Assembly: GCA_008704415.1 (NCBI GenBank)
Contig: VXIS01000201.1
Span: forward strand, 1-64,000
Source: Sphaerosporella brunnea
Taxonomy: Eukaryota; Ascomycota; Pezizomycetes; Pezizales; Pyronemataceae
Length of the DNA: 64,000 nt
Reading direction: 5' to 3'
The notes below the pieces were generated by a model. That model saw only the letters and a program-made list of their open reading frames with translations, searched no databases and had not been told where the DNA came from. Of the stretch, positions 28,558 to 59,370 are shown one piece after another; within the stretch, counting starts at the first letter, position 1; each line of letters begins with the position of its first letter. A program made the position numbers and the translations under genes.

Positions 28558-29500
28558 GCCAGGTCAGCGTGCACTCAATAAAAGCGTACCAATCACGGGA
28601 ACCATTTTTCGAGAGTAAGTCTGGGTGTAAAGCTTTGTCTGCGACGAGATTGACCAGTCACGCTAAGACTGGCTACTGCGCGGACATCCACACTCCAGAC
28701 GGGTGCAAGTGATGTGCAACGTCTGTCTACGAGCACCGCAATCTGCTGGAAAACCCCAACCCGCATCCTGCCTTACCCAAGCTGCGCCGGATTGGATATA
28801 TCAACGGCCGTGGACAGCTCGATATCTTCAGGCTTCACTCCAAGTACAGTGTCGAATCCACAGCATGATGTTGAGCAACTCCGGCAAGTGTTTTTACAGG
28901 CACGGTCACAGCGGATTCAGCCCCTTGCGCCAGCTCAGTTTGGCTATTTCGCCGCGAGTACCCGAGATTTTATTGTTTCTTTTTGCGCAGCCCTGGCTCC
29001 AGGGTTAGCGTTAGGGTTGGATGCCAGGGCAGGTGCTAGCAACATTCCTAGCGTGAACGCTAAGAATATTCCGCAGTCCCTGACCACGTGTTCAAACGTT
29101 CACGTACCTTTCGCCTGCCTAACCCACGTTCGACATCGGTTAGCCGAAAGTTGCGCGTGTAGAGAAACACAACCGGTGGAGGGAACCGCGTCGCGGCAAT
29201 ACACGAAACGACGTACAGCACGCGTGCTTGCGGCGCTTCCATCCGCGCGCAGGCAATCCGCGGTGTGATCTTGACAACTCCAGCCTACTACTCGCTTCTG
29301 CTTCCGGTCCAGACTGCGATAGCCGCAGACTTTTGACAGTGTTCAAGACTAGTATAGGGCAGGCGGAGTATAGCACCGATGGGCACAGGGGCTCAGTGAC
29401 GGACAACACAACCCGTCCGGGTCAGGTCGTTGAAAGCTCTGAAGGCGTGGCTCCGGCACTGCACAAACGCCAGGCCTGACGCCCGTCCGTTGCAGAGTTG
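28558..29500. other. No gene supported; gypsy-1 target region
   Basis: A 184-codon plus frame (28714-29268) has protein-like composition with a helical VEQLRQVFLQARSQRIQPL stretch but no recognised domain; a retroelement or host-gene exon is possible. GGGTTAGCGTTAGGGTTGG at about 29001-29019 is a telomere-like match. Bases 29496-29500 (AGTTG) are the left target duplication of gypsy-1. Confidence 0.4.
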
Positions 29501-29632
29501 TGTAGGGATATACATAGGTACATAGGTACGAGTGACGACTAGTGAGGGAACCTAGATAGACCTGTTCCCCGCTGGCGTCGCTTAGGATCAATCAACCTTT
29601 CCCCTACAAACCAACCCCTATCCCTCGCGACA
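29501..29632 (+). repeat. gypsy-1 5' LTR
   Basis: 132 bp, starting TGTAGGGATATACATAGG and ending TCCCTCGCGACA, with TG...CA ends. Identical to 35101-35232. Contains the short direct repeat ACATAGGTACATAGGTAC. Confidence 0.97.
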
Positions 29633-29634
29633 TT

Positions 29635-29643
29635 TGGTAGCAG
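29635..29643 (+). promoter_or_regulatory. gypsy-1 primer-binding site candidate
   Basis: TGGTAGCAG two bases after the 5' LTR fits the complement of the 3' end of initiator methionine tRNA, the usual primer for many LTR retrotransposons. The match is short (9-10 bases). Confidence 0.65.
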
Positions 29644-29765
29644 CACCTTACTCGGACAGACGTACCTCGTTACCTTGTAACGTTCTCTACGCGCGTCTGA
29701 GTAAAGCAAAGCAACCGACAAACCGACAACGAGACACCGAGCGGAGTGAAGCAAAGCAAGCGACA

Positions 29766-31235
29766 ATGGACTTCGGCGGTGGGATTGACGAACTCGAACC
29801 ACCTGGCAACCCGTGGATGCCCCAGATGACCCAGATGCCCGCTCAGATGGACCCCTCTACAGTGGCGATGTTTCAGGCTGAACACAACAGTCAGATGAGA
29901 GCCGCGCAGGAGGAGTACGAGCGACGACTTGGTGAGGTTCAGGCGGACCACAATCGACAACTGGCAGAATTGAGAAACGCACTGGCTCAGCTGCAGCAAC
30001 AGCAGCAGCCACAACAGCAGCCACAACAGCAGGCACGACAGCAGCCGCAACAGCAGGCACAACAGTATACACCACCTCCGATCCCAGGTTCCGCAATTCT
30101 TGCTGCTGCGCAGCGACCCAATCGTCTTGATCCTGATTATAATCAGAAGCAGCAGCTGAAGGCAATCGCTCTCACGGCATTTGAGGGGGACTTTGATCAC
30201 AAGTTGGTGGTGACGTTCATTCAGAAGGTCCGCCTTGCTGGCACTGTGATGCGCCTTCGACCTACAATCTCGACAGCTGATTCCAACGCACTCATTGAAT
30301 TTGCAGCTGGTTGGTTTGCAGATGAGCCAATGAACTGGTTCCAGCTGGTGGTCTTGGAGGATAATCACAGCACTACGTATGACGATGCCCGGAACGATGG
30401 ATTTCTCTTTACCTTCAATGAGTTTGCGGACATGATGGTTCACCGATTCTCGCCAACGGGGGCTACGGAGGACCTGTGGACTGAGCTGGAGAAGATGCAG
30501 AGGAAGAAGTATACTACGGCATATGCTTTCCATCATGCCTTCCTGGGAATCGCTAAGATGCTCGGAGTTTATCGACAAACAGAGCAGAAGGGTGGACGTG
30601 CCTTTGCCCTCTACGTCAAGAAACTTACTGCGCGGGAGGAGACGATTTACCAGTCGATGATGGCTACCCTCCACCGTGAGCACAAGACCATGTATCTGGA
30701 TGACCTGATGACTATCGTGGAGAACGCTGAGTCGAACCGCTCAAACCTACCCTCAACAGCAACCCCTACAGCTACTCCCTCTTCAACTCCTGCTGTCCTG
30801 ACTACTCCAACTATGACCACTAGACCGACACCGATGGAATTGGATGCAGTAAGCGTTCGAGGTCGCGGTCGTGGACGAGGACAGGGACAGGACCGCGAGA
30901 AGTGTTTCAAGTGCGGCGGCTATGGCCATCATTCTTACCAGTGCGGCACTCCCGACGATTACAAGTCTGGTGGTGGTTTGCCGAGTCGTGGCCGTGGCCG
31001 TGGAGGACATGATGGAGAAGGCCGTGGAGGACGAGGTGGATATAGCGGATATGGTAGCCGTAGTGGCTATAGTGGACGTGGCCGTGGCGGAAACAGCCAA
31101 GTCAACCAGCTTGAAGATGGCGACAAGGAAAAGACAGAAAAGAAAGCGAAGCATAAGGAGATGGGTGGACGCATAATTGGCGAGGTCCGAGATGGCAAGC
31201 TGTATGCATTGGAGGATAAGGAGGCGGATTTTTGA
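29766..31235 (+). CDS. gypsy-1 Gag
   Basis: Intact 489-residue Gag, ATG (MDFGGGID) to TGA. An upstream extension of the frame into the LTR lacks a better start. Residues about 30-75 form a charged helix, followed by a Gln tract (about 73-100; LQQQQQPQQQPQQQ). Residues about 130-330 fit a retrotransposon capsid-like region, with conserved features such as WFADEPMNWF and FADMMVHRFSP. A CCHC zinc knuckle, CFKCGGYGHHSYQC, lies at 380-393, flanked by RGRGRGRGQGQ and a long GRGRGG/SGY-rich RNA-binding tail. Gag packages element RNA into cytoplasmic particles. Pol begins in the -1 frame across the stop: GAT TTT TGA could be re-read as TTT TTG ACT, consistent with -1 frameshifting. Confidence 0.93.
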   Translation: MDFGGGIDELEPPGNPWMPQMTQMPAQMDPSTVAMFQAEHNSQMRAAQEEYERRLGEVQADHNRQLAELRNALAQLQQQQQPQQQPQQQARQQPQQQAQQYTPPPIPGSAILAAAQRPNRLDPDYNQKQQLKAIALTAFEGDFDHKLVVTFIQKVRLAGTVMRLRPTISTADSNALIEFAAGWFADEPMNWFQLVVLEDNHSTTYDDARNDGFLFTFNEFADMMVHRFSPTGATEDLWTELEKMQRKKYTTAYAFHHAFLGIAKMLGVYRQTEQKGGRAFALYVKKLTAREETIYQSMMATLHREHKTMYLDDLMTIVENAESNRSNLPSTATPTATPSSTPAVLTTPTMTTRPTPMELDAVSVRGRGRGRGQGQDREKCFKCGGYGHHSYQCGTPDDYKSGGGLPSRGRGRGGHDGEGRGGRGGYSGYGSRSGYSGRGRGGNSQVNQLEDGDKEKTEKKAKHKEMGGRIIGEVRDGKLYALEDKEADF

Positions 31236-34200
31236 CTCGGGCTGCCGCCACGCGCACGACAGCCCACAGATCGGTCAAAATGGAGCTTAGCATAGTTGAT
31301 GGAGATTCAGCTAATCTACTACATTTCAATTTGCCGGTTCTAAGTCGCGAAGAGAAGAGAGTGGCTACAGCTTATTCGTTGATGGATGGTGGAGCAAGCC
31401 ATAAATTTGTTACACCATCAATGGTGGAGGCAATTGAAGCAGCGGCAGGAGAGAAGATGGAGAGACGCAACCGTGGAAATATGGAACTCACGACAGCCGG
31501 AAAAGTGGAAAACCTGCCACGAGTGCAAGTGAAGCTGAAAATCGCATTCGGTCGTTTCAAATACTCAGGTTGGTTCACACTATACAACCTGGTGAAATAC
31601 GACATAATCTTTGGCAAAGATTGGATGGAGGAGATCGAGCACGACATCAATCATACCACCAACGTCATCACAATCCACCCGGTGGGCGGAATCGAAGCTG
31701 TTCGCCTCCGCGGCCTGGTGAGAGGTGTAGGACGAGAAGGTGGCACTTCAGAGGAGGAGAAGGACAAAGGAGAAGGACGAGAAGGTGGCACTTCCGAGGA
31801 GGAGAAGGAAAAAGGAGAAGGACGAGAGGATGGCATTGATCTTATGGTTGTTGAGCAGGTGGTTGCATACATTGATCCACCTGGTGAAAGGGAGTACGAG
31901 GACATGGCGATATCCACAACCGCATGCCGAGAGTATTACTCTTCACGTCGCACGGAGCCTGTTTCTGCACGAACACGTCGCCTGGCAAGCTTGGAAGCAG
32001 CAAAGACCATTCACGAGCTATTTGTAGCGGAGTTGAATCAAGTGGAAAGTCCAAGTCCTATGGATGCCAAGATTCGTAAGGAGTATGCCGACCTCTTCAA
32101 GGAACCAGAAGGGTTGCCTCCACACCGACCTAAGTTTGGCGATTTCCGTATACGACTGGTTCCTGGATCTCAAGCTCCATACCGAGCTCCATATCGCCTT
32201 ACCCCGGCAGAATGGGATGAGTATAAGCGGCAGACAAAGCTATTCAGCAGCAAACGACATATCCAACGCAGTCGCTCACCCTATGCAGCCCCAGTGTTAT
32301 TTGTTCCCAAACCAGGTGGAGCGCCTGGAGAACTACGTATGGTAATCGACTATCGAGCACTCAATGCAATTACCATCAAGGATCGATTTCCGCTACCACT
32401 ACCAGAGGAACATGAGTGGCATGTAAAAGCGGTCCTGGATACGCTGCGAAAGAATGTGTTCCGCCTGAAGGACAAGAAATGCGCGTTTGGTCATCAGGAA
32501 ACCGACTTTGTTGGCTTCCACATTGATGGCAAGGGTATCCGTCTAACGGAAGACAAGATCAAGTCAATCGCCAGCTGGCCAATGATTCAATCACCCAAGG
32601 ACGCTCGGATCTTTCTGGGCCTTGCAGGAGCATACCGCAAGTTCGTACCCAAGTTTACCATCAAGGCTTTACCGTTCTTCGAGGTCCTCAATATGAGCAA
32701 GCATGAATTCCGTGCGCATGTGGCCAATACTGAGAATCAGGCAAGGCTGGAGCAGGCTCTGGCAGATCTCAAGGAAGTACTAACGTCAGAACCCTGTCTG
32801 GCACTACCGGAGGCTGGAAACAGTGAATTCCTTGTTCGAACAGATGCTTCAGATTTTGGCATTGGTGCCACGCTACGACAGCTACAGCAAACGAACGATG
32901 ACGGCCAAAGCTTTGAGGAGAAAGTACTGGCCTATTTCTCACGCAAACTTCACGGTGCGGAACAACGTTATTCCACATACGACAAGGAACTTCTTGCAAT
33001 CCGTGACGCTCTGAAGCATTGGCGATACTACTTACTGGGCCGCCACACAACTATATCAACTGATCACGCCAGCTTACGCCACATGCTACAGCAACCAAAG
33101 CTCAGTCAACGTCAGATGCGTGCTCTTGAGGATATGATGGAGTATGATTTTGATGTTGAATACTTACCGGGAGCAAAGAACTACGTGCAGGATGCCCTGA
33201 GTAGACGTCCTGATTACAAGGAGCCACCACTACCACGCTTGACATCTGCGAGCAAGTAATTGGCGAATGAGGAGCTATTTCAACTGGCTATTGAAGACGG
33301 CAAGGAATGGTTCGAGAGCATCCGTCATGGATATTTGGAGGATCCCTACTGCCGCGATGTATTGTATCATTTACAACCAGAACCGAACCCAGTTGGCAAA
33401 CGGTCACCAGGAGAGGAGCGACAGCACAAGGCCGACCTTCGACGGCAGCACTCTCGTGGACGACACTACCATTTGGACGATGGTATGATCATTCACAACC
33501 ATACTGGCTGTCTGGTCATCCCGCAGATAAAAGATATCAAGTATCGCATTCTTCGAGAGGCACATGACGCGGCAGTTGGAGGCCACTTTGGGCTTAGCAG
33601 AACGTACGAAACAATTGCACGAAGGTTCTTTTGGCCGCGAATGTATCAGGAAGTGAAGCGCTATGTGCAAGGCTGTGCAACATGTGCACGCACCAAGTCA
33701 TCAAATTAGAAGCCGTACGGACTCCTACAGCCCTTGGATATCCCGGACGAGAGATGGCGGAGAATTAATATCGATTTTATTACAAAGTTACCGGTGACGA
33801 AGGATGGAAATGACACCATCATCACTATTATCGATGCTTTGACAAAGCGTACACACTGGATTGCGACCACGGAGAAGGACCTGACAGCTGTAAAGTTTGC
33901 TGAGATTTTCCAGGACCACTACGTGCGATACCATGGACTCCCGGATGCGATTGTCTCCGATCGCGACATACGATTCACATCAACATTCTGGGAGACCCTG
34001 ATGAGTGAATTCGATACCAAGCTCCGTATGTCAACAGCATTTCACCCTCAGACTGATGGGCAGGCTGAAAAGGCAAACTCGATTGTTGAGCGATATCTCA
34101 GGTCATATGCAGGCGAACGCCAGGATGAATGGGATCAACTGCTCGCTCTCGCAGAATTCGCATACAACGCAACACGGCAGAAGTCGATCGAAATGTCTCC

Positions 34201-35047
34201 ATTTGAAGCTGATCTCGGTTACATTCCTCGCATGCCACTTGATGCTCTTGCAAGTGTTGGAAAAGAACGGAGCCGTAGAGAAGGTCTGAGGAGTCGGCCC
34301 GGACAGGTGAATTTGCCGGCAGATGGCCGTACATTCGCAGCAGAAATGGTTAACACGCTTAATCGACTACGACCAAATATTCAGCACGCGCAGGAACAGC
34401 AAGTAGCAGAAGCCAACAAGCATCGACAACCACATACCTTTCAGCAAGGAGATAAAGTTCTGTTGTCCGCAAAGAATCTACCAATCACGTATGCCACCGA
34501 TACCGATAACCACCGTAAAGTACTACACCAGAATTATATCGGAGAATTTGAGCTTGGAAAGCAGCACGGTGAAAATGCGTTTGAAGTTCTATTGCCCAAG
34601 AACTGGAAGATAGCACGCACTCAGAATGTGGCTTCACTCAAGCCCTCGACCATTGATCACTCACGACCGCAGGCACCAGCTCCTGCACTGCGCGTCACAC
34701 GAGCCCATGCAAAAGCACAGCCTGAGGCAGAGTATGGAGTTGAGGAAATTCGCTCATGGCGCCGAAACCCGGATGAGGGTGGACGGATCGAGTACGAGGT
34801 AAAATGGGAAAACGATGAGGAGTTGACTTGGGAGCCAGCAGAGATGTTTACTGGCGGTGGAACGGAGATACTGCAGGAATTTCAGGCTGCGGATGAGGAG
34901 TTGCAGCGTGTACTGGCAGCCGAGAAGGCAAAAACACGGCCCCGGCGCAAACGACGGAAAAGGCAAGCATGGGTAATGGAGGTAGAAGACGGAGCAGTGG
35001 ATATCACGGTTTTCGAGGCAGATGATTGGAAGGAGGAAAAAGACTAG
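31232..35047 (+). pseudogene. gypsy-1 Pol: RT core deleted, two nonsense codons
   Basis: One frame from 31232 to TAG at 35047, broken by TAA at 33257-33259 and TAG at 33707-33709. Protease: LMDGGASHKF at residues 50-59, with DGG instead of DS/TG. A linker (168-199) has a 15-residue tandem repeat rich in GREGGTSEEE. The RT begins normally (RMVIDYRALNAI, KDRFPLPLPE at about 384-392) but jumps directly to EEHEWHVKAVLDTLRKN, skipping about 85 residues that should include the YxDD active site. RNase H is retained (VRTDAS, TYDKELLAI, STDHASL). Integrase after the stops has an HHCC finger (33540-33700), then D14, D76 and E112 of the last segment, with the canonical 35-residue D-E spacing. The chromodomain (YGVEEIRSWRRNP...EYEVKWE) covers residues 334-385 of that segment. 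Both stops could be C-to-T changes in Gln codons. Confidence 0.92.
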
Positions 35048-35085
35048 GAGGACTGAGAGGATGGAGATAGGGGATTTCTTTTTTG

Positions 35086-35100
35086 TCATCGGGGAGGTGA
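35086..35100 (+). promoter_or_regulatory. gypsy-1 polypurine tract candidate
   Basis: GGGGAGGTGA directly precedes the 3' LTR; the same GGAGGTGA-TGTAGG junction recurs at the related fragment ending at 59260. Confidence 0.6.
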
Positions 35101-35244
35101 TGTAGGGATATACATAGGTACATAGGTACGAGTGACGACTAGTGAGGGAACCTAGATAGACCTGTTCCCCGCTGGCGTCGCTTAGGATCAATCAACCTTT
35201 CCCCTACAAACCAACCCCTATCCCTCGCGACATCCCTCGCGACA
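35101..35244 (+). repeat. gypsy-1 3' LTR with 12-bp terminal duplication
   Basis: 35101-35232 is identical to the 5' LTR. The terminal 12 bases TCCCTCGCGACA are then repeated (35233-35244) before the AGTTG target duplication. So the integrated 3' end is 12 bp longer than the 5' LTR, and the duplication arose before or during integration. Confidence 0.95.
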
Positions 35245-35249
35245 AGTTG

Positions 35250-41467: not shown

Positions 41468-44400
41468 TTACTCACGTACTTCAAAAGCGGAAGAAGCAAT
41501 AGATGACATAGGAGAGGAACAGAAAGAATCATCAGAAGGAAAGAAAAAATCGGGAGGAAGAGTGACTGCGGTGGAGGTGTAGTCCTGGGTCCTCTTCGAA
41601 AGGAATTCCTGGATGGAATCTGCGCCAGTGTTGCGTACATTCTCATCAGGTTCCCAAGAGTTGTTTTCAGGTCCATAATTCTCCCAAGAGATATACCAGT
41701 AATCGATACCGTTAATCTTCTTGTGGTCGAGAATCTCCTTGATGTTGTAGAGAGTGTGGTCGTCTTCTTCTTCGTCATCGTAGCTGGAGGGAGGAGGCGG
41801 AATTGTCTTGTCTGAAATTCGCTGGAAGAGCTTGAGTTTGTCCTGGGCGAAGATGGGATAAACACGCTTGTTCTTGGGGAGTTCAAGTGTGCAGTTGCCT
41901 GTATCCTCATCGACTTTGGTGATCCTGTAGGGCCCTTCCCAAACTTCCATAAGCTTCCTAACCTTGCCCTTCCCTCGAGAACGTCTCTTGTAAAACACCC
42001 ATTGTCCAACCTGAAGTTGAACCTTAGGATTCCTACGCTTGGCAGCAATGCTTGCCTGGCGGTGACGTGCTGCCAGCAATGCATCTCGAGCCACAGCATT
42101 GTTGATCTTTTGCTGCTCGAGGTACTCATTGACTGCAGGGACATTCGAATCGAATTCAACTGGTAAAATGCGAGGGATATGACCAAATTGAACTTCGTGA
42201 GGGGTACGCTTGATGGTGGTGGAAGGAGAGTGGTTGAAGGCGTGCTCAACACGCCAGAGGTGACGAGACCAGTCTGCCTGTTTGTTGTTGGTGAAAATCC
42301 GAAGCATTTGAGCAATGGTACGGTTGGCCCGCTCCACTTGTCCATTGGTGTTTTGATGGAAAGCGGTGGCCATGAGGAGGTCGGTACCAATCTGCTTGTG
42401 GAGTCCTTGCCAGAACTGCGAGGTGAATCGAGGGTCTCTGTCCGAAACGATTGACTCTGGGAGTCCGTAGCGAGCGTAGTAGTGTTTAATGAAAACATCC
42501 GTAACATCCTTTGCCGAAAATCCGTCCTTTAGGGGAACCAAAACAAGACCAGAAGAAAAACGATCTATAATGACCATGATGTGCTTGAATCCGTCCGAAA
42601 AGTTGAATGGACCAAGGAAGTCAATGGCAATTGACTCCCAAGGGCGAAGGGGGATTTCCAAGAGGCGAGCTTTGCCAATTGGCTTGGTAGTGGCATCTTT
42701 GTTGCGCTGACACTCAAGGCATTCTCTGCAGAACTCGTCGATGTCCTGCTTCATCCTAGGCCAGTAAAAACTCTGCCTGCATAGGATGTAGGTCTTCTCG
42801 GTGCCTTGATGTCCCACACTCTTGTGACAACTCTGCATGATGACATGCCGGACTGAGGAGGAGGGATTGTCTCTGGAAAGGACTGCATTGGGGACGTAAA
42901 CTCCAAGGTTGGAGGTGATGGAGGGGTCATCTAGCACAACATATCCTGTGTCATGCCAGTGAAATGGCTTGCGAATGCCATTCTTGACCATGGGATCGTC
43001 TTCATATGCCTGCTTGAATGTAGGGAGCATGGCCTTCCCTATGTGGTTGTCAAGGAAAAATGCAGGTACTCTGTTGCGAGTGTCGTAATGAATGACTTTC
43101 TGGGAACGATTTCCTGGTGGGTGTTGAGGTGGTTCGAACATTTCTGCATCCTCTTTGTCCAGAAGAGGGGTTTCGTCCGAAATCGATGGCTGAATTTTTT
43201 GCTGAGTCCCTTCCCCTTCAAAATCCTTGTTGGAATCTTGGTCATGCTCTGCCGATTCCTTATCCTTTTTCTCCTGTTCCTTACGAGCCTGAGCTCGAGT
43301 TAGAAAGGCCTGGGGATCAGACGGTATGGGTTCCATGGGTGGGGAAATGGGCTCAATGGGCCGCTCTCTCTGGAGTCTGGGTACCAGATGGCGGTGACTG
43401 GATGGGTTGGAAATCTGACTATCTTGGTGGGTGGCAGCTTGGAGGAGCGCACATACTCCACCTGGGTTGGCCTCAGCCTGGCCATAAACCTGTCGATTTC
43501 CTCCTTCGATGGGGTCTTTGTCGACCAAGAGGGGGTTTCTCCTGGGTGCGATGGCGTAGGTTTGGAATGGCATGACTTCGTCCTGGATTCGCTGAGGGTT
43601 TTCCTGGTTGTTCTGTTGCTGGTCTGGGAGCGTCCTGGGGGTAGGCGTGGTGGTGAAGGTCTGTACTTGTCTGGGTATATCCTGTTTCCACCAAGGGCCG
43701 TCTGGGTGTTGTCTCTCCTGTGGGAATTTCGGGCGTGGTGCGCCTGATTCTGGAGTCCATTGGAGGGCAGGTGCCCTTGAACTATTCGCGTAGGTGATGT
43801 AACCATGGTGGACAAGCCACTCATAGTTGCCGATGAGGTCTTCATCTGGGTCTGGACATTCTGAATTGGGTCCAAATGAATCGTCCATGTCTGTGTCTTC
43901 GTCTGGGGAGTCGTAGAACTCGTCGTCGCTATCGGATTCAAATTGAGCGTGATACTGAGAGTTTGACTTCCAGGTGCTGAAGGTTTCCATGAATCCTGAG
44001 GAATAGTGATATGGGCAGCCGTCTCTGGAGCGGCAGGCTGTCCAGTGGAGGTTTGGGTCGCACCTCTTATAGCGCGAGGCTCCCTTGGGGCGGAGGCTGG
44101 CGGAAGGTTTGTTGTTTGAGGTGGACATCTCATTTGAGACTTGAAGAGCGTGTGAAAAGTGTGAGGAAAGCTTGTCTGTTTCGGTGGAGGTGGTCTGTTG
44201 AGGAATGGAGGTTGTTGGGTTGAGGAGACTGTCAATGGAGCCGAAATCCTCTGGTTTTAAGTTCTCATGGAGGAACTCATCCGGTGGCGTTATCTGCTTG
44301 TCCTCATCCTCATACAGACGTGAAAGGGTGTCTGCTAATTGATTGCTTTCTCCTGGTGTGTGCTGGATTTGGAAATTGAACATCTGGATGTATTCCAACC

Positions 44401-45853
44401 ATCTGGCTAGTCTGCCAGTGGTCATGGGTTTCGTCACAAGGTACTCCAGTGCCTTGTGGTCAGTAATTACCGTAAATGGTATTCCTAATAGCTTTGTTTC
44501 GAATGCACCTAGTGCATCAACTATAGCTAGAAGCTCCTGGTTGGTGGTGTTGTAATTTTCCTGGGTGGCGGTAAAGCGTCTGCTGTGTATCGCTGCGATT
44601 TTAGACTTTGAATCTTCTAGATTCTTGCCATGACAAATGAATGCACCCGTCCCCACCCGAAATGCATCTGTCACCAGATACACCTTATCTTTGCCTGACT
44701 TGATTCTGTCATATCGAAGTGGTGTGAGGGGTACATGTTTTCGGCAAAGATCCTTGATCTGCCGAAATGCATGGTCATGCAGGGTATCCCATCGCCACTC
44801 AGCATTTCCGGTTAATTCCGTGAGTGGTGCTAGGATAGTGGAGCTGTGAAAAAGGTGTGGTGCCACATAATTTATTACACCTAAAAAGCTTTGCAGCTGC
44901 TTTTTGTTTGTGGGTGTGCGCCAATCCTGTATTTTCCGAATTCTCTCTGGGTGTGGGTGGATCTCATGACCAGAGATAATGTGTCCTAGGAGGCGTAGCT
45001 GGGATGTCATGAACTGACATTTGTCCATCCTGAGATAGAACTTCGCTTTTGCAAGCTGCCGAAAAACTTGCTCAAGGTGTCGCATGTGTTCTTCTCGAGT
45101 TTCGGAAAAGATAAGGTTGTCATCTAGGTACACCCATACAAATTTTCCGATGAATTCACCTAAGATAGTGTTCATGCAGCGCATCATGGTTGCAGGAGCA
45201 TTGCAGTCTCCCTGCAGCATGACCTTAACTTGAAAAGAGCCGAGGTCATCTGCATTGATGACATTTAATTCTTCCGATGATGGCTCCACTCGTACCTGGT
45301 GATAGGCGTTGGAAAGGTCTAGAACTGACTTGAAGTTTGCTCTAGCAGCATCCTCTCGGATGTTATCTGCATGAGGTAGTGGCGTGTAGTCCCGTTCTGT
45401 GATGCTATTCCTATCTCGAAGGTCATTCACCCATCTCCATCCTTTGGAGGGTGGTATCTTTGGTGTTCCGAAAATTGAACATGGGAATCTGCCGGGTCCA
45501 GGCACTGCAATTCCCTGTCGTTTCCAATTGTCCAGGTGAGCAATGAGGTCCTTCCGGTAGGCGTCAGGAATACGTCTTGCATGGAACTTGAATTGCTCGA
45601 GTTTGTCTGGATCAAGTCTGACCACATGGTTGCATCTATCACGTAGTGGAGGTAATCCTTCTGGTTCCTTCTCTGGGAATACTGTTGGAAACATCTTATC
45701 GAAAGGTGGGATGTCTTCGGTAGTTGCTGATGATGTGAGAGAGAATGTTCTAAGCTGTCTTGTTGCACACTGGATGGTGGTGTCATGTTTCGGGAAGTGT
45801 GCTGTAGAATCTGCCGTATTCAGGTTCACATGGTTATCCTGAAGGAAAGGCAT
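41468..45853 (-). CDS. gypsy-2 Pol: RT, RNase H, integrase, chromodomain
   Basis: 1461 codons without interruption. RT has FGTPKIPPS, LDLSNAYHQV and the active site VYLDDNLIF (Y242, D244, D245). RNase H shows LVTDAF (D396), NQELLAI (E440) and ITDHKAL (D465). Integrase has an HHCC finger (H1010, H1015, C1045, C1048), then D1078, D1138 and E1174 with 35 residues between the last two. A GPY/F-like module follows, and a chromodomain at 1369-1420 (YNIKEILDHKKINGIDYWYI ... SWENYGPENNSWEP). Residues about 515-925 form an unusually long acidic, Pro/Gln-rich insertion between RNase H and integrase with a C598/C607/C613/H616 cluster. The listed start is a Met codon inside the protease-RT junction; translation probably enters by frameshift, so the mature N-terminus lies farther upstream (VAVSSYDIILEMPFLQ is in frame). 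Confidence 0.95.
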   Translation of the reverse strand: MPFLQDNHVNLNTADSTAHFPKHDTTIQCATRQLRTFSLTSSATTEDIPPFDKMFPTVFPEKEPEGLPPLRDRCNHVVRLDPDKLEQFKFHARRIPDAYRKDLIAHLDNWKRQGIAVPGPGRFPCSIFGTPKIPPSKGWRWVNDLRDRNSITERDYTPLPHADNIREDAARANFKSVLDLSNAYHQVRVEPSSEELNVINADDLGSFQVKVMLQGDCNAPATMMRCMNTILGEFIGKFVWVYLDDNLIFSETREEHMRHLEQVFRQLAKAKFYLRMDKCQFMTSQLRLLGHIISGHEIHPHPERIRKIQDWRTPTNKKQLQSFLGVINYVAPHLFHSSTILAPLTELTGNAEWRWDTLHDHAFRQIKDLCRKHVPLTPLRYDRIKSGKDKVYLVTDAFRVGTGAFICHGKNLEDSKSKIAAIHSRRFTATQENYNTTNQELLAIVDALGAFETKLLGIPFTVITDHKALEYLVTKPMTTGRLARWLEYIQMFNFQIQHTPGESNQLADTLSRLYEDEDKQITPPDEFLHENLKPEDFGSIDSLLNPTTSIPQQTTSTETDKLSSHFSHALQVSNEMSTSNNKPSASLRPKGASRYKRCDPNLHWTACRSRDGCPYHYSSGFMETFSTWKSNSQYHAQFESDSDDEFYDSPDEDTDMDDSFGPNSECPDPDEDLIGNYEWLVHHGYITYANSSRAPALQWTPESGAPRPKFPQERQHPDGPWWKQDIPRQVQTFTTTPTPRTLPDQQQNNQENPQRIQDEVMPFQTYAIAPRRNPLLVDKDPIEGGNRQVYGQAEANPGGVCALLQAATHQDSQISNPSSHRHLVPRLQRERPIEPISPPMEPIPSDPQAFLTRAQARKEQEKKDKESAEHDQDSNKDFEGEGTQQKIQPSISDETPLLDKEDAEMFEPPQHPPGNRSQKVIHYDTRNRVPAFFLDNHIGKAMLPTFKQAYEDDPMVKNGIRKPFHWHDTGYVVLDDPSITSNLGVYVPNAVLSRDNPSSSVRHVIMQSCHKSVGHQGTEKTYILCRQSFYWPRMKQDIDEFCRECLECQRNKDATTKPIGKARLLEIPLRPWESIAIDFLGPFNFSDGFKHIMVIIDRFSSGLVLVPLKDGFSAKDVTDVFIKHYYARYGLPESIVSDRDPRFTSQFWQGLHKQIGTDLLMATAFHQNTNGQVERANRTIAQMLRIFTNNKQADWSRHLWRVEHAFNHSPSTTIKRTPHEVQFGHIPRILPVEFDSNVPAVNEYLEQQKINNAVARDALLAARHRQASIAAKRRNPKVQLQVGQWVFYKRRSRGKGKVRKLMEVWEGPYRITKVDEDTGNCTLELPKNKRVYPIFAQDKLKLFQRISDKTIPPPPSSYDDEEEDDHTLYNIKEILDHKKINGIDYWYISWENYGPENNSWEPDENVRNTGADSIQEFLSKRTQDYTSTAVTLPPDFFFPSDDSFCSSPMSSIASSAFEVRE

Positions 45854-45885
45854 TTCTAGGATGATGTCGTATGAGCTGACTGCGA

Positions 45886-46239
45886 CTATGAAAACTTCGT
45901 TTTCTCAGTGAATCCTGGTTTAATTTCGACGTTGGCGTAAGCAAATCGATTGGCGTTTGTCTTGGATCCTTTCGCGGCCATGTGAATGGTGATAGGTTGC
46001 GGCAGTTCTCTGGTAAAGATGTTGTGTGTCTGGGCCCAACTGCTGGACATAAGATTCGTCCCTGTTGTCCCTGTGTCTAGAAGAACTCTCGCCTGCCTTT
46101 CGTTGACATTCATGTTGGTGACCATGTTGTTGATGTTGTCCTTCTTGCTATGTTCTGCTCGTGCAGTTTCGATGAATTCTTCCACAGTTGGCGGTAAGTT
46201 GTCTTCCATTATGTTGACAGTGGTTCTTGCTGATTGAAC
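45886..46239 (-). CDS. gypsy-2 protease segment
   Basis: In the same frame as Gag, directly after Gag's TAG. It encodes about 117 codons with a retropepsin-like active site, VLLDTGTTGTNLM (DTG at codons 45-47 counted from the internal ATG at 46209), followed by a HMAAKGSK flap-like region and YANVEIKPGFTEK. It ends at TAG 45886-45888. The expected continuation, VAVSSYDIILEMPFLQ, lies in the -1 frame. The switch must occur within GAG AAA ACG AAG TTT TCA TAG, because an upstream TGA closes the -1 frame just before it. A programmed -1 shift or loss of one A from the AAAA run would both fit. Confidence 0.8.
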   Translation of the reverse strand, partial: VQSARTTVNIMEDNLPPTVEEFIETARAEHSKKDNINNMVTNMNVNERQARVLLDTGTTGTNLMSSSWAQTHNIFTRELPQPITIHMAAKGSKTNANRFAYANVEIKPGFTEKTKFS

Positions 46240-47847
46240 CTATTTGCCTTGTTGCTGATTTCGTTGCTTGGCTCTGCATTCGTTGATGAAGTGTCCTGCC
46301 TTCTTGCAGTAGAAGCACTTCTTCTCCTGTCTGAGTTGCGCTTTCTCATGGTCTGAAAGCTTCTTGAATTGCTTGTTGTTCCTTCCTTGGTTTCCTCGTC
46401 CTGAGTTGTTGTTGTTCTTGCTGAACTGAGGATTCATAGCATTGCTAGAATGGTGTTGTCCATTTCGATTCAATTGTTGCGGTCGTCCATACTTTCCAGC
46501 TTGGAAAAGAGCGGCATCCTTTCGTTCCGCTAGTTTCTTGACGTCTTCCCATTTCGCTGTCGATCGATCCACACCCTCAGGCTCAACTGCATAGCGAAGA
46601 TCTGGGTGCATAGCATCCAAGAATCGCTGGATTTTGACCTGGGTGTTGATGGCTTTTCCGATTGGAGCTGCTACTTTCTCAAGTCGAATGGCAGTGGCGT
46701 TGATGCGGTCAACTCTGCCATTTCGAGTTTGAGAGATCTTATACCAATCATCCCAATATCGATTGACTTCTGTGGATGGAATGATGTGGTTCTTGAGCTG
46801 AGTGAGGAACTCATCGAAATTCATGGTTCCTTCCATTCGTTTGGTATGGTAGAACTCCTTTGCTGTTCCGCTGACAAAGTACTGAAGCACTAGGAGTTTT
46901 TTGTCGTTGTCTTGAAGTCCTGAAAGCGTTAGGTAGTCCTTGACTTCCTGTAACCACGCATCAATGGTGGCTGCATCTCGATCCTGATTCTCTCCTGAAT
47001 ATGTTCGTGGCTTTGGGACTTTAAACTTGTCTGCCATGATAGTGGTTGCTTTGGCTTCGATTTTTGCCTTGAAAAGCTGTTTCCTTGGGGACCGTGGGTT
47101 TGGATTTTCTTCTTCTGAGCTGGATTCGTCCTCTTCAAATCCTCCTGGTGGTCTTGGAGTTTCTTCGTGGCTAGTGTCTCTGACCTCGTGTGGTGGAGGA
47201 GTTGTTTGCCTTGTTAAGTCCAGGTAGTCTTGGATGGCTTTGTTTGTTGATGCTGTTAGAGCCGAGTCTGATTTGAATCTTCCTTCTTCGTATAGGCGTT
47301 GCCAGGCCTCACGTAGTCCTTTAGCTCGCTCTTTGGCTTCTTCGGTTGTTGCTTGTTGTATTTCTTGCTCAAGCTTTTCAAATCGTGGGGTAAATTGTTC
47401 CAACCGGAAGTTGTAAAGTTCCTTCTCAAGCTTGTTGAATTCGGAGCTGGTCTCAATGAGAAGTTCGTAGTTGTAGAGTAGGTCTGATCCAGAGCTTCTT
47501 GCAATCCAGTCAAGGATAAGCTCTATGTGGCTTTGAAGGTCCTGTAGACGCTTGCGTGCTTCGTGTTCTGATTTGAAAACTTGTGCAATAGGGGGCCGAT
47601 TTGTACTGGTCTCAGAGATGTCTGATTCGGTCTCTGATTTTGAATAGATTGATTGAAAGGCTTCGGTTTCCTCTGGTTGCTTCTTTCGTGGTCTGCCTCT
47701 CTTCTTTGGTTGTTGTCTCTGTTCCTCTGCTTCGTCGTGGAGCGCTTGAATGACCTCTTCTGTGGGTATTTCTGGATTGAGGCGTTGGGTCCTTCTTGTT
47801 GCTGTTGGTTGCTCCGTGGTGATGGTTGTTGTGCACTTCCCTGAGGC
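46240..47847 (-). CDS. gypsy-2 Gag, start unresolved, AT-hook near N-terminus
   Basis: The frame is open for 535 codons after a TAA at 47848-47850, but contains no ATG until deep inside (IMADKFKVPKP near 47040). A non-AUG start, a missing upstream exon or a lost ATG is therefore needed. Near the N-terminus is QPKKRGRPRKKQPEE (47681-47707), an AT-hook-like RGRP core. The middle has a coiled-coil-like helix (EKLEQEIQQATTEEAKERAK), then a capsid-like region (DAWLQEVKDYLTLSGL, FDEFLTQLKNHIIP). A CCHC zinc knuckle, CFYCKKAGHFINEC, lies near the C-terminus after an Asn/Gly-rich stretch. It ends in RNQQQGK and TAG; the reading frame continues into protease without a shift. Confidence 0.85.
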   Translation of the reverse strand, partial: ASGKCTTTITTEQPTATRRTQRLNPEIPTEEVIQALHDEAEEQRQQPKKRGRPRKKQPEETEAFQSIYSKSETESDISETSTNRPPIAQVFKSEHEARKRLQDLQSHIELILDWIARSSGSDLLYNYELLIETSSEFNKLEKELYNFRLEQFTPRFEKLEQEIQQATTEEAKERAKGLREAWQRLYEEGRFKSDSALTASTNKAIQDYLDLTRQTTPPPHEVRDTSHEETPRPPGGFEEDESSSEEENPNPRSPRKQLFKAKIEAKATTIMADKFKVPKPRTYSGENQDRDAATIDAWLQEVKDYLTLSGLQDNDKKLLVLQYFVSGTAKEFYHTKRMEGTMNFDEFLTQLKNHIIPSTEVNRYWDDWYKISQTRNGRVDRINATAIRLEKVAAPIGKAINTQVKIQRFLDAMHPDLRYAVEPEGVDRSTAKWEDVKKLAERKDAALFQAGKYGRPQQLNRNGQHHSSNAMNPQFSKNNNNSGRGNQGRNNKQFKKLSDHEKAQLRQEKKCFYCKKAGHFINECRAKQRNQQQGK

Positions 47848-56423: not shown

Positions 56424-58889
56424 CACATGGCGCGTAGCCGGCGAGGGGCCGAGAAAGGCCTAAATAGGCGCGTAGACGAGAGAACGACTCAGCTAAGCTC
56501 GGCGATGGCTTGCCATGAGTGTTTCGCATTCATTGAAAGTTTGCAGCGCGCTTTAGAATCGTCGAAGCCATATGCCCTTAAGAACCCGATGCCTCCTATT
56601 CATCTTCTTTGTGACCTGTCGGTGGAGGTCATCCACCTGGGGGCGATTAATAAGGTCGTCCATGATGACATGGTATAAAGCAGACTGCCAATTCTGTCCA
56701 GTTCCCAACGGTAGCAACTACTACGCTTTTCCTTTTACTTCGTTCGTAGTCAGCGAAGAGAGGCGGTACTGCAGCGAACTTTGATGATGGTCGAAATTTT
56801 GTGCGGACAGGAAATGTGTACGATACACGGTCATAGTTGCAACGCCATTGAAAGGAACCATAGGGTGGTGCCATGTGAGACACGGCGCAAAGACCTCTCC
56901 CCCTCGACCAATCAGGATACCGCCTCACTGTTTCGAGAAGGGGTTCCAAGCGACATTTGGGTACCTCTCACCTGACAACGACGATGACAAAGATCCCGGG
57001 ACTATAGGGTTGAGGAGCACAGCACCGGTCCGGTAGACATACGTGCTGGGTTTGACCTCGCAAGAAGGACAGGCCCGCGCGCTTCGGGATGTCAGTGTGT
57101 TGAATGACGGAAATTTTGCTGTTAGTTGACAGTACTACAGAACTTGAATAGATCGTGCGCTATTAATCTACCAAAGCTATGGCCCATAATACGTGCCTCC
57201 CATAGCGCCCGCGGTGGAACTATGCGTAAATGTCCAATTGCATGCATGCATCACTCCACGCCGGATGCACCGAACGTGACGCCCAGCTCACGATAACGAT
57301 CACATCCACAGGCAGTGTAGGCCAACAATGGAAGAATTGTGGATTGCTCAGCCGACTCAATATTTGGCCGTTGGGTACGTTGTCTCTTTCAATAGCCATT
57401 CATTTGAATTCCACGTCATGGAACTCGTGGTGCCACTTTGAGCGTTGAATGTCCGCTCACGAGGGGAGACGACCAAACACAATCAGACGTCACGGTATCT
57501 CAAGAACCTGTCTGCTAGCCCAGGAGAGGAACAGCAAGCGTCCATCGTTAGGCGACATATAAGGTATCCTCTTTCGACGGAATCCCTCCAATAATATCGT
57601 ACATGAGTAGGTGTTGATTTAGCGTGGTAACTTCGATAGTCCAAGCGCCACGGTTGCATATTAACCCTCTCCGCGACAAAACGATTCATCCACCTTTACA
57701 CCTGAATCGCTATACCCACGAGGCCATCCAGTGAAATACTGGTAGCTGTCGTGATATATCCGGATCGGCTGCCCTTGTGTCCACGTCTCAGGGCGCACAC
57801 AGCGCTGCTCATTAAGCCGTCGCTCCGATTGGAAGTCGGAACAAACAAGTCCCAACCTCACGCTGGGATTTTTATTAAGCCTTTGTTCCCGCACGCCGGT
57901 GTACCTTGCGACGATTTCGGCGTCCAGGCCTATATTGACCAGCCTAGCGACGAGGCGCAGAAACGACTGAGGTTAACAAACATGCAAGTGTGTGACTACC
58001 ACACTCAGCGTGTCTAGTAAGAGCCACTCTCGGTGCCAGTTTCGCCATATCCCTATCCCTTTGAATTGGTTATATCTTCGTGTCACTACAGATCATCTAT
58101 GCCGGTGGGTCTTAACATGGTGGTGCCAACTTTCCTGTGCGATGGGCCTGACCCTGGCTGCTGTGTAGGTTTATGTCAGTTTGCTCCAGCGAATTTTTGC
58201 AGGCGATGTTCCCACCCACCGCTGTCCCCCTCTTTGTGTTTTTCCTTTTGGACCCGACACCAATGAGATAACCTTTCCCGGGTGTTGCATTCAGGCAAAC
58301 GCCTGACTCGGTGTCTCAAGGTCTCCCCCCCAGGATCAGCACGGCCCAGATTACCGCGCGCTGATGTAGCGGAACTGGGCAGAGATGGTGACCAGTGGTA
58401 GCAGGATAGTTCGGGATACCCCAACGTCACGCTGGACATGAACGGCCGCTTGGTGTTCGCCGTGGCAGCCATCTTTGTTGTTGTGCGTGCAGCGTGACGT
58501 TCGGATCAGTTGTGTTGGGGGTGCAGGCAATCAATACCGCCTCCGCTATTGACTCGCTACCTCGCACTCCGCGGCAAAACTATCACCACGCAGCGAGATG
58601 TTCGGGTTCCGCTCCCAAGAGTGTGTGCAGATCGGTTGTGCAGTCTACACTCCGTTCTTGCGTGCGTAGCTGTGACCGCAGCCTTTCCCGCGTGCACAGT
58701 GCAGAAGAAGCGTGGAAACCCTAACCCTAACCACATTACAGCACGCTCACGATAACTGTACGCTTTGAGAGTTTTACAAAGGCACATGCCGACACGCACG
58801 ACAGAATGCTGTCGAAGTCCTTCTACTCTCTCATTGGCGCACATTCAATGTTGATCGGCTCAAGCACTCAACAGATTTATCATCCACCA
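56424..58889. other. No gene supported
   Basis: Short unrelated frames on both strands without domains. Includes the telomere-like match at 58716-58732. The left 8 bp belong to the hAT target duplication. Confidence 0.45.
58716..58732 (+). repeat. Interstitial telomere-like repeat
   Basis: AAACCCTAACCCTAACC is two and a half copies of the CCCTAA telomere unit, the longest of several short matches in the window (others near 5162, 8005, 12655, 14727, 22686, 29001 and 51952). Confidence 0.7.
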
Positions 58890-59263
58890 GCACCAGCACT
58901 TGGAGTAGAAGGTGGCAACCACAGAGCTGAGTATGGAGTGGAAGAAATTCGGTCGTGGAGACGAAACCCTGAGGAAGGAGGACGCTTGGAGTACGAAGTT
59001 GAATGGGAAGACGATGGGGAGCTATGGTGGGAGCCAGAGGAATCGTTTGGAAAGGGCGGAAAGGAGATTTTGAACGAGTTCAAGGAGCGCGATGCGCAGC
59101 TGCAGCACGAACTGGCAGCGGAAACAGGGAAAACCACGACCCCGCAAGCGACGAAAAAGGCAAGCTTGGGTGATGGGGGGTGGCGGATAACACGGTTTTC
59201 GAGACAGACGATTGCGAGGATTGAGAAGGGGAGATTTCGTTTTTTCATCGCGGAGGTGATGTA
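58890..59263 (+). pseudogene. gypsy 3' fragment with chromodomain
   Basis: Encodes YGVEEIRSWRRNPEEGGRLE and YEVEWEDDGELWWEPEE, the chromodomain of a gypsy-1 relative (about 80% identical in this part), followed by KEILNEFKERDAQLQHELAA. The frame continues to TAG at 59262-59264, at the LTR border. Everything upstream of the chromodomain is absent, so this is a 5'-truncated remnant. Confidence 0.88.
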
Positions 59264-59370
59264 GGCATGTACATAGGTTCGAGTGCTGCCCAGTGCAGCT
59301 GGGCAGATAGACCTCGGGTCCTCGACCCTTCCTTCTGATCGACTCACCTTCACCTATCCCACCCTCCACA
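59260..59370 (+). repeat. Diverged LTR of the gypsy fragment
   Basis: Starts TGTAGGCATGTACATAGGTT directly after a GGAGGTGA purine tract, as in gypsy-1, and ends near CCACCCTCCACA. About 111 bp; the end position is estimated. Confidence 0.65.

What the first reader, a model, noticed from the sequence alone, without database searches (positions are those of the whole stretch)
32392..32430. Recently inserted gypsy element without an RT active site
Gypsy-1 has LTRs identical over 132 bp and a perfect 5-bp duplication, yet its RT jumps in frame from KDRFPLPLPE to EEHEWHVKAVL, removing about 85 residues including the YxDD motif. The shared Glu-Glu codons at the junction suggest a microhomology deletion or template switch. 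A copy this young and this defective must have been made with another element's RT, so a trans-mobilised deletion lineage may exist.
Basis: partly seen in the sequence, partly recalled or inferred. Interest (0 to 1): 0.75.

Follow-up and report, generated by a model that had tools for sequence, protein, structure and literature searches.

The report
One-off deletion in fungal retrotransposon copy
One copy of a fungal "jumping gene" has lost the core of its copying enzyme in a single slip between two short repeats; no other copy examined shares the loss, so it does not show a family of defective elements living off healthy relatives, and it looks ordinary.

Summary
The element (29501-35232) has identical 132-bp LTRs and a perfect 5-bp target duplication. 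Its reverse transcriptase (RT) jumps in frame at 32405-32411: relatives show 267 bp (89 codons, with the FIDD active site) missing between two 7-bp direct repeats. The inference does not hold. The junction was found once in the 50.6-Mb assembly. The 6 other copies found to span the site are undeleted, and 0 of 76 protein hits have both flanks without the segment, 12 not judgeable. This copy also has two private stops and 36-42 private substitutions, more than its three close relatives. Zero differences in 132 bp of LTR cannot show that it is younger than its defects (P = 0.19). A deletion made while this copy's cDNA was synthesised, or after insertion, needs no second element. I favour an RT template switch in the cycle that made this copy, narrowly over later deletion; a 12-bp duplication of the 3' LTR end at the insertion border hints at irregular cDNA synthesis. 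A trans-mobilised lineage is not excluded (9 further LTR sites do not reach the region), but evidence for it is weak. Interest is low.

The parts
29496..29500 (.). left target-site duplication AGTTG
   Evidence: read directly
29501..29632 (+). 5' LTR, 132 bp, TG...CA
   Evidence: identical to the 3' LTR
29766..31235 (+). gag frame from its first ATG; open in this copy
   Evidence: ORF 29586-31235, first M of its translation at 29766; same element position 266 in a relative without indels here; 0 Pfam hits
31220..33259 (+). pol frame, first open piece: remainder of the deleted RT, and RNase H; ends in a private stop at 33257-33259
32405..32411 (+). deletion junction: the one remaining copy of the 7-bp direct repeat GAGGAAC; 267 bp (89 codons with the FIDD motif) missing
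33707..33709 (+). second private in-frame stop in pol
33710..35047 (+). pol frame, last open piece: integrase core, SH3 and chromodomain-like end
   Evidence: Pfam rve 20.3 bits, SH3_Tf2-1 24 bits, Chromo 24.9 bits, all under their cut-offs
35101..35232 (+). 3' LTR, 132 bp
35233..35244 (+). 12-bp duplication of the LTR end; only instance found in the assembly at up to 2 mismatches
35245..35249 (.). right target-site duplication AGTTG

Best explanation
This is one copy of a low-copy Ty3/gypsy (chromovirus-like) LTR retrotransposon of an ascomycete fungus. It suffered a single 267-bp deletion between two 7-bp direct repeats, found in no other copy that could be examined. Most likely the deletion arose by an intramolecular template switch of reverse transcriptase while this copy's cDNA was being made from an undeleted parental RNA, with proteins of the same family; the already deleted cDNA was then integrated. 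Shown: the deletion, its repeat, its uniqueness among testable copies, the intact insertion signature. Inferred: that it happened before rather than after integration. That the deletion is private to this copy, whatever its timing, I hold at about 0.88.
For: 7-bp direct repeat exactly at the gap in 3 of 3 close relatives; no other indel against these three over 5732 aligned bases; junction once in the assembly; 6 of 6 other copies found to span the site undeleted. The only other indel of this copy is a 12-bp duplication whose end coincides with the LTR/target border, which suggests abnormal cDNA ends or integration. The three close relatives have 69 private substitutions together and no indel among them, so later indels look rare here. 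A review describes intramolecular template switching between direct repeats as a source of deletions in retroviral reverse transcription (PMC3187697, passages).
Against: The junction would look the same if made after insertion. The review reports lower deletion frequency for shorter repeats (PMC3187697, passages), and 7 bp is very short. A survey of Triticeae LTR elements counts 220 'other recombination events' (it files all deletions there) and only 2 template-switching complexes (PMC1950507, passages). The predicted RNA fold of the segment in one relative is not unusual (z = -1.39; 10 of 100 shuffles fold at least as well). Two more private stops fit decay after insertion.
Confidence: 0.48

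Rival explanations
1. Post-insertion deletion: the copy inserted whole and later lost 267 bp by slippage or microhomology-mediated repair between the two 7-bp repeats, as part of ordinary decay.
For: Two private stops and 36-42 private substitutions, with a share of amino-acid-changing ones not far from neutral (20 of 36, stops included; neutral mean 23.9; P = 0.12 by simulation; 0.038 by a plain binomial). LTR identity does not forbid it (P = 0.19). Another copy (C605) has its own 147-bp in-frame RT deletion at a 4-bp repeat that its close relative C6 lacks. In rice, small deletions at micro-homologies in LTR elements are common, 0.095 per substitution and 2.79 bp lost per substitution, i.e. 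about 29 bp each by my division (PMC1940013, passages).
Against: 0 indels among the three close relatives, which have 69 private substitutions. C115's private C:G>T:A changes are less CpG-biased than theirs (6 of 27 against 23 of 39, Fisher P = 0.005), so part of its branch may predate insertion. The 12-bp end duplication points to the insertion event itself. 267 bp is long for the small deletions reported in rice.
Confidence: 0.4
2. Trans-mobilised deletion lineage: an RT-less element is copied repeatedly by RT from full-length relatives.
For: Non-autonomous LTR elements living off relatives are known: BARE2 transcripts are packaged in BARE1 particles (PMC3735527, passages), and a fungal survey says that one genome often holds such a pair (PMC3248453, passages). 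If this copy's stops predate its insertion, its RNA needed help. Pooled over four copies the LTRs are somewhat more alike than expected if all private changes came later (1 difference, 4.7 expected, P = 0.052). The low CpG share of C115's changes could mean change before insertion. The deletion is in frame.
Against: Junction found once with up to 3 mismatches in 37 bases. 6 of 6 other copies found to span the site are undeleted. No other young copy shares C115's private states, either among the four full-length ones (by construction) or in the four truncated ones where they cover them; C115 has the state of the older copies at 6 sites. 0 of 76 protein hits have both flanks without the segment; 12 of the 76 could not be judged.
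Confidence: 0.08
3. Assembly artefact: the segment was lost by a collapse between near-identical copies.
For: Draft assembly of 640 contigs; several copies are cut at or near contig ends.
Against: The junction sequence exists in no other place found, so a mix of copies would not create it. The 42 private substitutions fall on both sides, 21 and 21. No N in the window. No second full-length match to the 601 bases left of the insertion, only partial ones of 68-90% identity.
Confidence: 0.03

Closest known systems
Fungal Ty3/gypsy chromoviruses
   Same: LTRs TG...CA, 5-bp target duplication, gag then RT-RNase H-integrase, chromodomain-like end
   Different: This copy lacks most of the RT palm and carries two stops; its chromodomain score is just under the Pfam cut-off (24.9 against 25.1 bits)
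Direct-repeat deletions by intramolecular template switching in retroviruses (PMC3187697, passages)
   Same: Loss of one repeat and everything between, precise junction
   Different: Repeat only 7 bp; the event is read from a genome, not from a single-cycle test
Illegitimate-recombination deletions in plant LTR elements (PMC1940013, passages)
   Same: Deletion flanked by micro-homology in an inserted copy
   Different: 267 bp, against about 29 bp on average in rice (my division of the two rates shown)
BARE2 and other parasitic LTR elements (PMC3735527, passages)
   Same: A deletion removes a function that a relative could supply
   Different: BARE2 is a subfamily with a conserved deletion that abolishes gag; here one copy only, and RT is hit

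Membership tests
Ty3/gypsy LTR retrotransposon | LTR pair and 5-bp target duplication | tested here: met
   5-bp duplications are also readable in the 6 other full-length copies
Ty3/gypsy LTR retrotransposon | domain order RT, RNase H, integrase | tested here: met
   this copy; the rve and RVT_1 scores are under cut-off; an undeleted relative, to the integrase zinc-binding domain
Ty3/gypsy LTR retrotransposon | RT with xxDD active site | tested here: not met
   this copy lacks it; 3 of 3 close relatives have FIDD. It is a defective copy of such an element, not a functional one
Chromovirus | chromodomain at the integrase C-terminus | tested here: inconclusive
   E = 1.9e-5, 24.9 bits, cut-off 25.1
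Ty3/gypsy LTR retrotransposon | tRNA or self-primed primer-binding site | not tested
   sequence after the 5' LTR seen, primer not identified
Non-autonomous, trans-mobilised deletion lineage (BARE2-like) | two or more insertions sharing the same deletion | tested here: not met
   1 junction in the assembly; 7 loci span the site, 9 further LTR sites do not
Non-autonomous, trans-mobilised deletion lineage (BARE2-like) | packaging and copying of the deleted RNA by a helper | not testable with these tools
   needs RNA or particles

The most novel reading that the evidence does not exclude
This copy is the only sampled member of an RT-less sublineage that split off early from the other young copies, lost its RT, gathered stops and was still copied by helper RT. 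The low CpG share of its private changes and its unchanged LTRs would then reflect change before insertion.
Probability: 0.08. Interest if true: 0.4.

Novelty: new member of a known kind. Interest (0 to 1): 0.12.

Why it matters
It matters mainly as a caution: identical short LTRs do not date an insertion finely enough to place a defect before or after it, and a deletion made during reverse transcription needs no helper element. If the lineage reading were true, it would be a fungal RT-less parasite of a chromovirus-like element, comparable to BARE2 in barley.

Tried and rejected
Not favoured: a shared deletion lineage as the leading reading. Rejected: assembly collapse. Could not be tested: a switch between two different RNAs at the junction; among the four close copies only 3 sites split two against two. 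Tried without result: RNA fold of the lost segment in one relative (z = -1.39); dating by LTRs (too short); nine paper searches, which gave general precedents in their listings but no described case like this one that I saw; passages of PMC12789967 did not bear on deletions between direct repeats. In one search the first 24 listed C115-only columns (32373-32404) are an artefact of how I cut that copy; I dropped them. In some searches I dropped 6 of 42 private sites where C115 has the state of all older copies. One search failed half-way and was rerun.

Full report
What is there. The element spans 29501-35232 in the window, which is part of contig C115 (88,642 bases) of a 50.6-Mb, 640-contig assembly. 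The two LTRs are 132 bp, TG...CA and identical. The target duplication is AGTTG at 29496-29500 and 35245-35249. Between the 3' LTR and the right AGTTG lies a second copy of the last 12 LTR bases; this tandem pair was found nowhere else in the assembly at up to 2 mismatches. The host is an ascomycete: among the listed hits (the best 120 of 3396) of an RNA-polymerase III subunit from this genome, the best named one is from Tuber magnatum, 82% identical, followed by Arthrobotrys and Orbilia at 78%; unnamed metagenome proteins reach 84%.

The gap. A 201-base query over the junction found seven loci of this family and two distant ones of 78% identity over 68 bases. In the six other family loci the two halves of the query match separately, and the alignment shows the same 267-bp gap against all six. 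Against the three closest copies (C123, C110, C159) it is the only indel over 5732 aligned bases. In these three the segment is bounded by GAGGAAC twice; the window copy keeps one. The segment codes for 89 residues with FIDD. The Pfam RT match is accordingly cut to profile positions 163-205 at 26.4 bits, under the 29.6 cut-off, against 1-205 at 108.5 bits in an undeleted copy. Random break points in one relative would share 7 or more bases in 0.05% of cases.

Is it a lineage? A 37-base junction pattern with up to 3 mismatches occurs once in the assembly. LTR matches number 23, a lower bound by the tool's own words: 14 belong to the seven full-length copies and 9 stand alone. I fetched stretches around all 9; in none does the match reach the deletion site, because the copies stop at contig ends or against other sequence, are LTR-only, or are remote. 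So 7 of 16 LTR-bearing sites could be tested, and 1 of 7 has this deletion. Four of the truncated ones (C109, C621, C631, C187) overlap the right part; they share C115's private state at 0 of 14, 0 of 11, 0 of 9 and 0 of 8 sites. If those private changes came after insertion this says nothing about siblings, so the four cannot be excluded as deletion carriers.

Age. Among the four close copies there are 116 variable sites outside the gap: 42 private to C115, 33 to C159, 25 to C123, 12 to C110, and 4 others. At 6 of the 42, C115 has the state of the three older copies, which suggests that C115 split off before the other three. With those dropped, C115 has 36 private changes: 16 silent, 18 amino-acid-changing and 2 stops; a neutral simulation gives 9.9, 21.7 and 2.2 (and 2.2 non-coding), with P = 0.12 for as few changing ones; a plain binomial gives 0.038. 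If all 36 came after insertion, 1.66 LTR differences are expected and none is seen, P = 0.19; over the four copies 4.7 are expected and 1 seen, P = 0.052. LTR identity therefore neither proves recent insertion nor places the deletion. Identical LTRs are also usual here: in 5 of 7 full-length copies the pair does not differ, one pair has 1 difference and one has 4.

Decay is common in this family. Five of the seven full-length copies carry at least one in-frame stop or a deletion in pol. One of them, C605, has its own 147-bp in-frame RT deletion at a 4-bp repeat (GCAT), absent from its close relative C6. Two different RT deletions at short repeats, each in one copy, argue for a general mutational process rather than for one inherited deletion.

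A result that cuts the other way. C115's private C:G>T:A changes fall in CpG in 6 of 27 cases, against 23 of 39 in the three close copies (Fisher P = 0.005). In the black truffle, methylation prefers CpG and targets transposable elements (PMC4165359, abstract), so a CpG bias may be expected of changes made after insertion. C115 may thus have gathered part of its changes before insertion. This is the best hint for the lineage reading, but it is also explained by descent through undeleted elements, or by a site that is less methylated.

Mechanism. The anatomy allows two ordinary routes. Reverse transcriptase can jump from one repeat to the other on the same template; a review describes this for retroviruses, with frequency rising with repeat length (PMC3187697, passages). 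Or DNA repair or replication can do it after insertion, as proposed for rice LTR elements (PMC1940013, passages); a Triticeae survey files 220 events, all deletions included, under recombination and only 2 complexes under template switching (PMC1950507, passages). The 12-bp duplication that ends exactly at the LTR border is more easily placed at cDNA end formation or integration than at a random later slip, and the other close copies have no indels among them. I therefore put the first route slightly ahead (0.48 against 0.40). In neither route is RT from a second, different kind of element required, because the parental RNA was undeleted. Parasitic LTR elements do exist (PMC3735527, passages; PMC3248453, passages), but the feature that defines them, several insertions with the same defect, was tested and not met as far as this assembly allows.

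Verdict. A correctly read sequence, an over-reached inference, and most likely an ordinary defective copy.

Noticed in passing
35233-35244: 12-bp duplication of the 3' LTR end, lying between the LTR and the target duplication; found once in the assembly.
   Followed up: yes
31220-31235: gag and pol frames overlap by 16 nt in the -1 direction in 7 of 7 copies; in the window gag ends in T TTT TGA; a possible frameshift or restart site.
   Followed up: partly
L013 (C605): Another copy with a private 147-bp in-frame RT deletion at a 4-bp repeat and identical LTRs.
   Followed up: partly
41468-47847, minus strand: A different gypsy element with a 1478-residue open pol that has RT, RNase H, integrase and chromodomain matches.
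   Followed up: partly
L017, L018, L024: Sequence next to the broken ends of the partial copies C109 and C631 is 99.7% alike over 699 bases and also occurs in C141, as if another repeat had inserted into them.
   Followed up: partly
about 31730-31840: Repeat of about 45 bp in pol (GREGGTSEEEK...), seen by eye, with 45 bp more in the four close copies than in the three older ones.
   Followed up: no
58731-59264: Reading frame resembling by eye the chromodomain end of this family's pol (AEYGVEEIRSWRRNP); no Pfam match.
   Followed up: no
29501-35232: Private C:G>T:A changes of this copy are much less CpG-biased than those of its three close relatives, 6 of 27 against 23 of 39.
   Followed up: partly
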